A stretch of 64,000 bases of DNA from assembly GCA_902777385.1 (NCBI GenBank), contig CACYTP010000008.1, positions 1 to 64,000 on the forward strand. The letters are read 5' to 3'. The DNA comes from an uncultured bacterium. GTDB taxonomy: Bacteria; Cyanobacteriota; Vampirovibrionia; Gastranaerophilales; Gastranaerophilaceae. Under the pieces are notes generated by a model. The model made no database searches. It was not told where the DNA came from and saw nothing but the letters and a program-made list of their open reading frames with translations. Both the position numbers and the translations under genes were made by a program. Below are positions 32,000 to 36,218 of this stretch, piece after piece (position 1 is the first letter of the stretch; every line of letters starts with the position of its first letter).

Positions 32000-32002
<3 letters not shown>

Positions 32003-32173
32003 ATAAAAAGGATAGGGTTTATTCCTATCCTTTTTATTACGTTAGGAAGTATGAGAAGCTCCGTTTTGAAGTTTGAGAGGATTTTTTGCAGAGGGCGAAG
32101 CTATTTTCTTTGAAGCAAATGAATTTGCAAAAAGAAAATACATAGACCCGTTTAACGCAAAAAATCCGATACA
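32000..32173 (+). repeat. 174-bp direct repeat, copy A (at the tRNA-Arg 3' end)
   Basis: This segment starts with the last bases of tRNA-Arg and includes its terminator. It recurs at 33035-33208 with only two differences that I can find (a T/A change in the terminator arm and a T/C change further on). It is non-coding as far as I can see. Confidence 0.9.
32002..32038 (+). terminator. terminator of tRNA-Arg
   Basis: A perfect 15-bp stem (32002-32016 with 32024-32038) closes a 7-nt loop; the 3' arm holds TTTTTATT. Confidence 0.88.
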
Positions 32174-32433: not shown

Positions 32434-32904
32434 CTAACCCAAATGCAAATTATCGAAATCAATATGTTTTAAAATCGGATGTTTTTCAGCTTCATTTTTA
32501 AAAGCAATATGATTAAAAAGCTCATTACCTTCTAAAAGAGCCTCCATAAAACCTTGTGTCGGTTTTTTATTTCTTTTTAAAAACTCATTTTCAATAATCA
32601 AATTTGGCATAGTTCTTTTTGAAATTTGTGCATGTTTATGCATATTGAAAAGTTTTACTATTGTATTAGTTATTAATTCTTCAGGCATTGCCAAAAGTTC
32701 TTCCATATATTTTTTAGGAATAACTGCTTTACCGTCATTAACCTCAATACTCTGTTCACTCATAACAATTGTATCGTGCGGATATTTTTGTGTTCTATTT
32801 CTTACACTTGTTATAACATTTTTTAATTTGTTGCTTTTTTCTATGCCTTGCAATTTCATAGATGCTTGAAAGTTAATTGAAGAATTGTTAATTGAATTGT
32901 TCAT
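32434..32904 (-). CDS. hypothetical protein with N-terminal FQA motif, between the repeats
   Basis: This 156-residue protein is not recognised. The N-terminus (MNNSINNSSINFQASMK) is polar with a short hydrophobic SINFQA, a form similar to the start of the neighbouring 987-residue protein. The rest is predicted helical and highly charged (EELLAMPEELITNTIVKLF, HKHAQISKR). No membrane segment or catalytic motif is visible. GAAAGG precedes the ATG. It is the only gene between the two 174-bp repeats, so it could be cargo of that duplicated unit. Confidence 0.6.
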   Translation of the reverse strand: MNNSINNSSINFQASMKLQGIEKSNKLKNVITSVRNRTQKYPHDTIVMSEQSIEVNDGKAVIPKKYMEELLAMPEELITNTIVKLFNMHKHAQISKRTMPNLIIENEFLKRNKKPTQGFMEALLEGNELFNHIAFKNEAEKHPILKHIDFDNLHLG

Positions 32905-33034: not shown

Positions 33035-33208
33035 GTAATAAAAAGGATAGGGTTTATTCCTATCCTTATTATTACGTTAGGAAGTATGAGAAGCTCCGTT
33101 TTGAAGTTCGAGAGGATTTTTTGCAGAGGGCGAAGCTATTTTCTTTGAAGCAAATGAATTTGCAAAAAGAAAATACATAGACCCGTTTAACGCAAAAAAT
33201 CCGATACA
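33035..33208 (+). repeat. 174-bp direct repeat, copy B
   Basis: This is the second copy of the tRNA-Arg-flanking segment, 1035 bp from copy A. Here no tRNA precedes it, and its terminator stem carries one mismatch. It ends 46 bp before the start of the 987-residue gene, whose TATAAT (33233-33238) lies just outside the repeat. Confidence 0.9.
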
Positions 33209-33254: not shown

Positions 33255-36218
33255 ATGGAAATTAACAGCAAAATTTTTGACACACAAAAATATAATACAA
33301 AATACCCTCTTTCATTTTGCGGTAATCCAATAAACAAGATTACGGAAGAATTAAGTGAAGAAGCAATAAAAAGGGCAAGTGATGCGGCAACTTCAATAGG
33401 CAAAGCCGGAATAGATATAGTTGCACAAAGGGCAAAAATAAAAACTATTAAACCTGAAGATATCACTTCAAGATTAGAAGCAGGGCTAAACAGGAAAGAA
33501 ATTTGCGAAGAATTTGGTATTTCTCCGTCGACATACAACAGACTGCTAATAAGATTTAATATAGTATCCGATTCAAAACAGACAATGCAGTTTACCCAGA
33601 ATTTGACTAAGGAGCAATTAGAAGAAATTCTTTCTCAAGATAAAACTCTTGATGAAATAGCAAAGGAACTTGGGGTATCAAAAGCAACTCTACACTACCA
33701 AAGGAAAAGATTAGGGATTGCCTCAGAATTAAGTGAACAAAAAAATAAAATCAAAACAATCACAAAAGAAGATATCTTAAAATATTTAAGCGAAAATAAA
33801 ACTCGTGCTGAAATTTGCGAAATTTTAAATATATCCGAAACAACATATACTAAATTATTGAACAAATATAATATAGTAACAGCACAAAAAATTGCAACAG
33901 AACACAGCAAAAGCATATCAAAAGAAAAATTAATTTCAATGCTGGATGCTAAAATACCAATAATGAAAATTTGCGAAGAATTAGGAATTTCATGGTCAAC
34001 ATTTAAAAAACTTACAACCGAATACGGAATACAAACAAAGCAAATGCAAACTCAGGCTCGAAATGCAACAATAACAATGGAGCAATTAACTCAACTTATA
34101 GAACAAGGGCTTTCAAGAGATGAAATATGTAAAAGATTAGGAATTAACCGACATACATACAATTCAAAATTAAACGAATTCGGCATAAAAAGCAGATTAT
34201 CGTTAAATAAAGAAAAAGTTGCATCAATTACACAAGAGCAGCTTGAACAATTAATGAGTAAAGCCAAAAGCGTAAAAGAAATATGCAAAGAGCTGGATAT
34301 TTCGACAGGAACATACAGCAGACTTTTACATAAATTTAATATACAAGGAAAACGTACTTCTAAAATCTCTGATGAAACTGCAAAACAATTCAAAGAATTA
34401 ATTGAACAGAACAAGTCTAAGGAAGAAATTTGCAACCAATTACATATCAACACTAATACTTATTTTATGATATGTCATGAACTCGGGATAAAAACAGCCG
34501 CAAAACAAATGGGAGAACACGCATCAACAATAGAAAAAGAAAATATTATAAGCTGCTTAAATCAGAATATGTCTGTCAACGAAATTCTTGAAACCTTAGG
34601 TATATCAAAAGCAGTATTAAGACGGCTATTAATAAAGTTTGATATAAAAACTTCGTGGAAAGCTGCAAGAGAAAAAGTAGCTAATGTAGATGAAGAAAAA
34701 CTTAAAAACCTAGTTGAGGAAGGGAAATCTCAAACGGAAATAACTGAGGCATTGAATATTTCAAAAGGGACATACATGAATCTTTTGAGAAAATTTAATA
34801 TTTCAACTTCCTACAAAGAATCCGGCAAAAAAATATCCGGCATAACAAAAGAGGCTATTACACAAAAATTGCTGGAAAACAAAAGTTACGCAGATATAGC
34901 CAAAGAATTTGGAATTGCTCCGAGCAGCGTATATAGGTTAATCTTAAAATACGATTTACCTTCCAAAGTGGGGAAAACGGCAGGACACAAAGAACTATGG
35001 GGGACACCTAAACCTTATGAAAAATATTCAATTTCGGAATTAAAAGAACGATTACTCGAAGTATTCCTAGAAAATCCAAACATTGCAAAGCAGAAAGATA
35101 TAGAATTTTTTACAGATTATATTTATGAAACAGATACTTTTACACCGGAATTACAAAACCAGGTAGTAGAATTCATAAGATTATTGGATTCTGCAGAAAG
35201 TAAAAGAATTTATGCAAAAGATATTATCAATCATCAGGTAATTGAAAAATTAGAACTCTCACTAGAACAAATTTCAAAAGATATAATTATCAAAGAGCAT
35301 TCAATGAACTATACAAACGAAATAGTTGAAACACTCTTAAATAAATTATATCAGGGAAACATGCCGGAACTGGCACAAATTTGCTTAAAATTTAAATCTA
35401 AATCAGTTAATGAATTTGATGAACAACTTGCACAAAAAATCACTTCAAGAATTAAAACAGTACTTGGAGAAGAAGGAAATATAAAAGCTGACAGATTGCG
35501 GCATCTCGTATATGAAATAATATATACGGAAAAATTACACTCAGCACCTGCTTCGGAAACTATAATAAAAGCTCAAAAATATGCTGCAAATAACAAGGGA
35601 GAAATAAGCCCATCAAAAGCAGGACAATATATCATTAATGCAGAAAGATTAGAAAACTATTTCAAAACAAGTGACAGCTCACCATACAACCAAGAATATT
35701 TCAAACTCATAAAAAATACTTTACTAAAAGACTCGAACGAGTCCGTAATTACACTTACAAAATTAGATAGCTGGTTCAATTCAGAATTTCCAAAAGACAA
35801 TCATTTAACAGAATTTCTCAAAATTTTTGACAAAGAAAATCCAATTGATAATTCAATAATTAAAAAATTTATACTTGATACCTACCAAAAAATCGACACT
35901 TGCACAGTATTCGAAACACAAAGTGGTGCAATTATAAGACCTAAAATATTATCATCAGTAAAAAAAGATATTATTGAAAAGTATAAATATCCAAATTGTA
36001 TAGAATATTTGGCAGCATTTGAAGACGGCATAAAAAGATTTGCTCCGCCAAAAGGTCAATCAGGAATAAAAATAGAAACAACAGGTCTTAAACGAATGAA
36101 AGTAAAAATCATAGGATACCCTGACAGATTATATTCTTCTAAAAAAGATTATGTTTTTGACAAGTACGATCCCGATCACAGGGCAAATTATAATCCGACA
36201 ACCAATAAGCATAACTAA
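33255..36218 (+). CDS. array of ten helix-turn-helix modules with a novel C-terminal region
   Basis: This 987-residue protein has a short N-terminus (NTKYPLSFCGNP, then a helical stretch to 60), an array at about 64-568, and a helical 420-residue C-terminal region with no motif I recognise. The array holds ten modules starting near 64, 116, 168, 220, 272, 324, 372, 425, 477 and 529, a period of 52 residues (156 bp). Each reads (T/S)I(T/S)(K/Q)E.L..L....(S/T)..EIC.ELGIS..TY..LL.KF.I, a homeodomain/resolvase-like helix-turn-helix, joined by a roughly 12-residue linker. Scaffold positions are conserved, whereas exposed residues of the third helix differ in each module. I infer sequence-specific binding to a long nucleic-acid site. 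No membrane or signal segment is seen. Confidence 0.8.
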   Translation: MEINSKIFDTQKYNTKYPLSFCGNPINKITEELSEEAIKRASDAATSIGKAGIDIVAQRAKIKTIKPEDITSRLEAGLNRKEICEEFGISPSTYNRLLIRFNIVSDSKQTMQFTQNLTKEQLEEILSQDKTLDEIAKELGVSKATLHYQRKRLGIASELSEQKNKIKTITKEDILKYLSENKTRAEICEILNISETTYTKLLNKYNIVTAQKIATEHSKSISKEKLISMLDAKIPIMKICEELGISWSTFKKLTTEYGIQTKQMQTQARNATITMEQLTQLIEQGLSRDEICKRLGINRHTYNSKLNEFGIKSRLSLNKEKVASITQEQLEQLMSKAKSVKEICKELDISTGTYSRLLHKFNIQGKRTSKISDETAKQFKELIEQNKSKEEICNQLHINTNTYFMICHELGIKTAAKQMGEHASTIEKENIISCLNQNMSVNEILETLGISKAVLRRLLIKFDIKTSWKAAREKVANVDEEKLKNLVEEGKSQTEITEALNISKGTYMNLLRKFNISTSYKESGKKISGITKEAITQKLLENKSYADIAKEFGIAPSSVYRLILKYDLPSKVGKTAGHKELWGTPKPYEKYSISELKERLLEVFLENPNIAKQKDIEFFTDYIYETDTFTPELQNQVVEFIRLLDSAESKRIYAKDIINHQVIEKLELSLEQISKDIIIKEHSMNYTNEIVETLLNKLYQGNMPELAQICLKFKSKSVNEFDEQLAQKITSRIKTVLGEEGNIKADRLRHLVYEIIYTEKLHSAPASETIIKAQKYAANNKGEISPSKAGQYIINAERLENYFKTSDSSPYNQEYFKLIKNTLLKDSNESVITLTKLDSWFNSEFPKDNHLTEFLKIFDKENPIDNSIIKKFILDTYQKIDTCTVFETQSGAIIRPKILSSVKKDIIEKYKYPNCIEYLAAFEDGIKRFAPPKGQSGIKIETTGLKRMKVKIIGYPDRLYSSKKDYVFDKYDPDHRANYNPTTNKHN

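What the first reader, a model, noticed from the sequence alone, without database searches (positions are those of the whole stretch)
33255..36218. Ten-module helix-turn-helix array with conserved scaffold and variable contact positions
Seen: ten repeats at a 52-residue period (starts near 64, 116, 168, 220, 272, 324, 372, 425, 477, 529), each a full trihelical HTH with E-I-C/A, L-G-I-S and (K/R)-(F/Y)-x-I scaffold positions. In the third helix the first exposed residues after the turn read PS, KA, ET, WS, RH, TG, TN, KA, KG and PS, and the next exposed pair NR, HY, TK, KK, NS, SR, FM, RR, MN and YR. Known: arrays such as TALE and PPR proteins show a fixed scaffold with variable contact residues. 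Inference: this is a modular reader of a long DNA (or RNA) site, fused to a 420-residue region of unknown fold. The even linkers argue that all modules are used together. I know of no described family of this kind in this lineage.
Basis: partly seen in the sequence, partly recalled or inferred. Interest (0 to 1): 0.88.

Follow-up and report, generated by a model that had tools for sequence, protein, structure and literature searches.

The report
Ten-module helix-turn-helix DNA-reader protein
A gut bacterium of the Gastranaerophilales encodes a protein with ten DNA-binding units in a row, one of a patchily distributed family of 5- to 11-unit arrays; it probably grips a long stretch of DNA the way the archaeal CRISPR-repeat-binding protein Cbp1 does with three units, but its target and job are untested.

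Summary
The 987-aa ORF holds ten helix-turn-helix (HTH) modules (aa 64-580); the quoted contact residues match exactly. Relatives exist only in the family Gastranaerophilaceae among the genomes searched: stand-alone arrays of 9, 7 or 5 modules, and fused proteins of 9-11 modules plus a C-terminal domain. That domain also ends a separate ~790-aa family and has no recognised fold. Modelled modules have three HTH helices plus a linking helix; the best Foldseek PDB hit, a weak one, is a Cbp1-type CRISPR-repeat-binding protein. The TALE comparison is only partly right: modules are about 30% identical, and contact positions are no better conserved between orthologues than other assumed-exposed positions. 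They are, however, significantly more module-specific, as expected if each module reads its own bases, and the stand-alone arrays are under purifying selection (dN/dS mostly 0.08-0.19). Best explanation: a colinear, long-footprint DNA-binding protein acting on the cell's own genome, not on CRISPR (Cas1 is absent). A side result may matter more: many array genes carry a lineage-specific N-terminal tag (FxG) and a promoter-like element (TAGCAAA...GTTTT...ATG) that mark a wider, apparently undescribed gene set.

The parts
33255..36218 (+). fused HTH-array protein, 987 aa (type B)
33255..33443 (+). N-terminal segment aa 1-63: disordered start with the 'LSFCG' (FxG) tag at aa 19-23, then a small-residue amphipathic segment (aa 35-60) aligned in the fused relatives
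33444..33599 (+). HTH module 1 (helix-3 contact residues PS/NR)
33600..33755 (+). HTH module 2 (KA/HY)
33756..33911 (+). HTH module 3 (ET/TK)
33912..34067 (+). HTH module 4 (WS/KK); modelled
34068..34223 (+). HTH module 5 (RH/NS); modelled
34224..34367 (+). HTH module 6 (TG/SR), shorter linker; modelled
34368..34526 (+). HTH module 7 (TN/FM)
34527..34682 (+). HTH module 8 (KA/RR)
34683..34838 (+). HTH module 9 (KG/MN)
34839..34994 (+). HTH module 10 (PS/YR)
34995..36215 (+). C-terminal lineage-specific domain aa 581-987, helical, no recognised fold; shared with ~790-aa proteins
35952..36170 (+). best-conserved end of the C-terminal domain (aa 900-972): two helices then four short strands, invariant K/R residues, near-invariant H at the end in relatives

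Best explanation
A sequence-specific double-stranded-DNA-binding protein that lies along a long site with its HTH modules in order, each contributing a few base contacts from its third helix, as shown for the three HTHs of archaeal Cbp1. At roughly 8 bp per HTH, as inferred from Cbp1 on its CRISPR repeat, ten modules would cover about 80 bp. It would act in its own cell as a regulator or local chromatin-type protein, with the C-terminal domain as a lineage-specific partner or effector part. Shown here: the HTH modules, positional orthology of the stand-alone arrays across genera, module-specific contact columns, and purifying selection on the stand-alone arrays. Inferred: DNA as ligand, colinear reading, footprint, location and role.
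For: HTH_23 E 5e-41 and a below-cut-off match to the CRISPR-repeat-binding Cbp1 model, E 8e-22. Three-module model, mean pLDDT 84, with HTH helices; top Foldseek PDB hit 2lvs, CRISPR-repeat-binding protein, E 0.21; 2lvs also appears by sequence, E 0.019. Array charge +17, C-terminal region neutral. Nine-module arrays keep module order across genera. Contact columns are more module-specific than other exposed columns. dN/dS mostly 0.08-0.19 in stand-alone arrays. Colinear HTH binding is shown experimentally for Cbp1 (PMC10883916).
Against: No binding data. Contact positions are not more conserved between orthologues than other assumed-exposed positions. The window's ten modules show no clear positional correspondence to any relative found, so its own target cannot be inferred. 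Genes are patchy (26 of 383 family genomes at E 1e-15) and one copy is broken by 8 stops (G026), so the protein is dispensable. No shared neighbour genes were seen.
Confidence: 0.57

Rival explanations
1. A nucleoid-type or architectural protein that binds DNA with little sequence preference, many weak HTHs adding up to avidity.
For: Modest charge spread over all modules; contact residues drift as fast as other surface residues between orthologues; no conserved neighbours.
Against: Contact columns are more module-specific than other exposed columns (81 of 20,349 column sets reach it); patchy distribution is unusual for a general nucleoid protein.
Confidence: 0.2
2. A binding scaffold whose HTH modules contact protein or RNA rather than DNA.
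Against: Most of the strongest sequence and fold neighbours are DNA binders.
Confidence: 0.1
3. A TALE-like exported protein: the FxG N-terminal tag is a sorting signal and the array reads DNA in another cell.
For: The tag and promoter-like element are shared with a set of unrelated proteins, among them a 5'-nucleotidase/phosphoesterase-like protein, a class usually outside the cytoplasm (the location is own knowledge).
Against: No secretion route, nuclear signal or host link was shown; the tag may have another meaning; the window gene itself lacks the promoter-like element; fused and stand-alone arrays are rare and patchy.
Confidence: 0.07
4. A degenerating relic of transposase-type HTHs without present function.
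For: Family matches include IS3, IS630 and IS481 transposase HTHs; one array in G026 is a pseudogene; the gene sits at a break in synteny.
Against: dN/dS mostly 0.08-0.19 in stand-alone arrays; intact frames in 8 or more genera.
Confidence: 0.06

Closest known systems
Cbp1 / Cbp2, CRISPR DNA repeat-binding proteins of Sulfolobales and relatives (NF040595; PDB 2lvs)
   Same: Tandem HTH modules from domain duplication; nearest NCBIfam model and top Foldseek PDB hit; three HTHs bind colinearly along a DNA site (PMC10883916).
   Different: Three (Cbp2: two) modules against 5-11; match below the curated cut-off; no Cas1 in the host genome; extra C-terminal domain and FxG tag; bacterial.
TAL effectors and other DNA-binding tandem-repeat proteins (STAR, MOON, pTERF; PMC11417379)
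   Same: A tandem array with variable positions that may read DNA.
   Different: HTH modules of 52 aa, about 30% identical, against near-identical 34-residue TALE repeats; the words HTH and helix-turn-helix do not occur in the main text of that survey.
HTH_23 / homeodomain-like HTH domains of transposases and resolvases
   Same: Fold of each module.
   Different: Those proteins normally carry one or two such domains; here there are ten.
Six-HTH protein of Euzebya pacifica plasmid pEDY32-46I (WP_216826637.1)
   Same: A 300-aa tandem HTH array with a period near 46 aa.
   Different: Actinobacterial, 22.8% identical, probably an independent array; no C-terminal domain or FxG tag.

Membership tests
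Cbp1 (NF040595) | score above the curated model cut-off (140 bits) | tested here: not met
   77.6 bits, E 8e-22
Cbp1 (NF040595) | three (Cbp2: two) HTH domains | tested here: not met
   ten modules
Cbp1 (NF040595) | CRISPR-Cas in the host | tested here: not met
   Cas1 (PF01867) absent in the own genome and in 25 of 26 genomes tested, most of them array bearers; CRISPR repeats as such were not searched genome-wide
Cbp1 (NF040595) | colinear binding of HTHs along a DNA repeat | not testable with these tools
   needs binding assays
TAL effectors | 33-35-aa near-identical repeats with a variable di-residue | tested here: not met
   52-aa period, mean 30% identity
TAL effectors | export by a secretion system into host cells | not testable with these tools
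   an FxG tag is present but its meaning is unknown
HTH_23 (PF13384) modules | match above the gathering score | tested here: met
   137.9 bits against 24.6, 8 stretches
HTH_23 (PF13384) modules | three-helix HTH fold | tested here: met
   model of modules 4-6, mean pLDDT 84.4, helices 4-12/17-24/28-37 in the first unit and alike in the others; only 3 rows in the alignment, pTM 0.47
PPR proteins | 35-aa helix-turn-helix hairpin repeats | tested here: not met
   52-aa period, HTH_23-type modules

The most novel reading that the evidence does not exclude
The arrays are exported or specially sorted modular DNA readers of a lineage-specific gene set (FxG N-terminal tag plus TAGCAAA...GTTTT...ATG element), that is, a bacterial HTH-based counterpart of TAL effectors in an animal-gut lineage.
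Probability: 0.06. Interest if true: 0.93.

Novelty: new variant of a known kind. Interest (0 to 1): 0.62.

Why it matters
Long natural HTH arrays with module-specific contact residues would be a new scaffold for reading long DNA sites and a way to learn how HTHs combine along DNA. The shared tag and promoter-like element point to a gene set, in a poorly known gut lineage, for which my searches of the held papers found no description.

Tried and rejected
TALE-type rule (only contact residues vary): rejected by column statistics. CRISPR role as for Cbp1: Cas1 absent. Phage origin: no match in phage records or viral contigs. Fold of the C-terminal domain: Foldseek on PDB and BFVD and VIA-align gave nothing above background, best E 0.12-0.2, Z 7.1 to designed helical proteins, and the whole 418-aa model may hide a small end domain; Pfam, PHROGs, PADLOC and PDB profile searches of the domain or its tail gave only weak scattered hits. 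A RelE/barnase-like reading of the tail came only from its helix/strand order and conserved K, R and H and was not tested. Array target: no long block shared upstream of the stand-alone arrays beyond the common promoter-like element. Positional orthology of the window's modules with other fused arrays: not significant for L064 (p 0.08) and patchy for L065. The first genome-contig query failed because the alignment was too diverse.

Full report
Observation. The ORF at 33255-36218 (+) encodes 987 aa. A module HMM finds ten modules at the stated starts, 65-79 bits each (the HMM was built from these modules), and Pfam HTH_23 matches with E 5e-41. Modules are on average 30% identical in protein and 46% in DNA, so the array is old. 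GC (31% array, 30% C-terminal region, 33% window) gives no sign of foreign origin.

Relatives. In the order, 69 of 286 genomes match the full protein, but the matches are of different kinds. Type A are stand-alone arrays with 9 modules (twelve proteins), 7 (three) or 5 (two). Type B are fused proteins: the window's (10 modules), L064 (10), L063 (9) and L065 (11, cut by a contig end); L066 is an array orthologous to that of L063 but without the C-terminal domain. Type C are ~770-820-aa proteins that share only the C-terminal ~400 aa; named records are mostly Candidatus Gastranaerophilales. A search with the type A profile finds arrays in 26 of 383 genomes of the family at E 1e-15 and, in a 386-genome sample of the phylum at E 1e-12, only inside this family. 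No match was found in phage records or viral contigs; one 6-module array in an actinobacterial plasmid looks independent.

Structure. AlphaFold2 on modules 4-6 (only three rows) gives mean pLDDT 84, pTM 0.47: three HTH helices per module and a fourth helix that links to the next. The top Foldseek PDB hit is 2lvs, a CRISPR-repeat-binding protein of the Cbp1 type, though weak (E 0.21; VIA Z 4.8, rmsd 7.5 over 83 residues). The relative orientation of the modules is therefore not established. I had no coordinates, so exposure was judged from column position and helix assignment, not computed. The C-terminal domain (25 rows, pLDDT 77) is helical with a better-predicted end of two helices and four short strands; no known fold emerged.

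Do the contact positions carry information? Across 17 type A arrays, contact columns 28, 29, 32, 33 and 36 have the same orthologue identity as 16 other columns taken as exposed (0.312 for both) but lower identity between different modules (0.119 against 0.185). Their orthologue/non-orthologue ratio is 2.6 against 1.7; the bootstrap CI of the difference is 0.43-1.70, and 81 of 20,349 five-column sets reach the contact set's value (3 of 4,368 within helices 1-3). This fits module-specific readers. It does not fit the TALE scheme in which all else is constant. The column classes were chosen from general knowledge of HTH-DNA contacts. dN/dS is mostly 0.08-0.19 in stand-alone arrays, with dS saturated in many pairs. 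This purifying selection was measured on type A arrays, not on the window protein, whose modules have no clear positional orthologues.

Mechanism. In Cbp1 the three HTHs line up along the CRISPR repeat in order (PMC10883916). By analogy, ten modules would lie along a site of about 80 bp. Cas1 is absent from the own genome and from 25 of 26 genomes tested, so a CRISPR role is unlikely. I give 0.57 to a specific long-footprint DNA binder acting in its own cell.

Surroundings. The downstream genes (36393 to about 41250) are syntenic in G005 and G012, but similarity stops at about 36390, so the array sits at a break. Upstream lie tRNA-Arg, a 174-bp repeat present twice at 99% identity (32000-32173, 33035-33208) and a small FxG-tagged gene between the copies.

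FxG tag and promoter-like element. Most of the array proteins, the type C proteins and many unrelated ORFs begin with a short polar N-terminus and a (I/V/P)-x-F-x-(G/A/S) motif (73 of 739 ORFs against 12 after shuffling, in loci enriched for these families). Most type A genes, and several type C and other tagged genes, carry TAGCAAA or a variant, an A/T-rich stretch and GTTTT or a variant shortly before the ATG. Searching for this element first gave matches in 38 of 60 family genomes and 116 of 192 order genomes with no match of the reversed control pattern, and only one match among 22 genomes outside the family. Of 36 ORFs found behind it, 25 have the tag by a loose rule that 28% of background ORFs also meet (Fisher p 1.7e-6); several of the rest have an FG variant. 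The window's array gene lacks the element; a variant lies 70 nt before the ORF at 32434-32904 (-).

Verdict. A real family of multi-HTH proteins that extends the known tandem-HTH kind (Cbp1) to 5-11 modules with added parts: a new variant of a known kind. The exported-reader reading is not excluded but has no direct support.

Noticed in passing
family-wide; e.g. L069 5766 (+), L074 1597 (+), L072 5799 (+); a variant 70 nt before the ORF at window 32434-32904 (-): Promoter-like element TAGCAAA-(A/T-rich)-GTTTT ending just before the ATG, found in 116 of 192 genomes of the order (all but one in family f1) with no reversed-pattern control match; genes behind it are enriched for the FxG tag.
   Followed up: partly
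N-termini of the array proteins, type C proteins and others, e.g. window 33309-33323: Lineage-specific N-terminal tag (M-x-I, polar stretch, then (I/V/P)-x-F-x-(G/A/S)) on many unrelated proteins, including phosphoesterase/5'-nucleotidase-like, acyltransferase-like and a weak Ntox44-like protein; possibly a sorting signal.
   Followed up: partly
window 32000-32173 and 33035-33208: 174-bp direct repeat, 99% identical, starting at the 3' end of tRNA-Arg and again just before the array gene, flanking a 156-aa ORF; related copies are dispersed in several genomes of the genus.
   Followed up: partly
L095 603-4627, L098 642-4627, L101 584-4627: Clusters of three consecutive FxG-tagged genes in type C loci (about 263, 257 and 775 aa).
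   Followed up: no
G026 contig 18 (L048): Array gene broken by 8 in-frame stops, with the promoter-like element matched nearby at contig position 2142-2180: probably a pseudogene.
   Followed up: no
L107 2441-3340: Six-module HTH array (period about 46 aa) on a Euzebya plasmid, with a GIY-YIG nuclease gene about 2 kb away.
   Followed up: no
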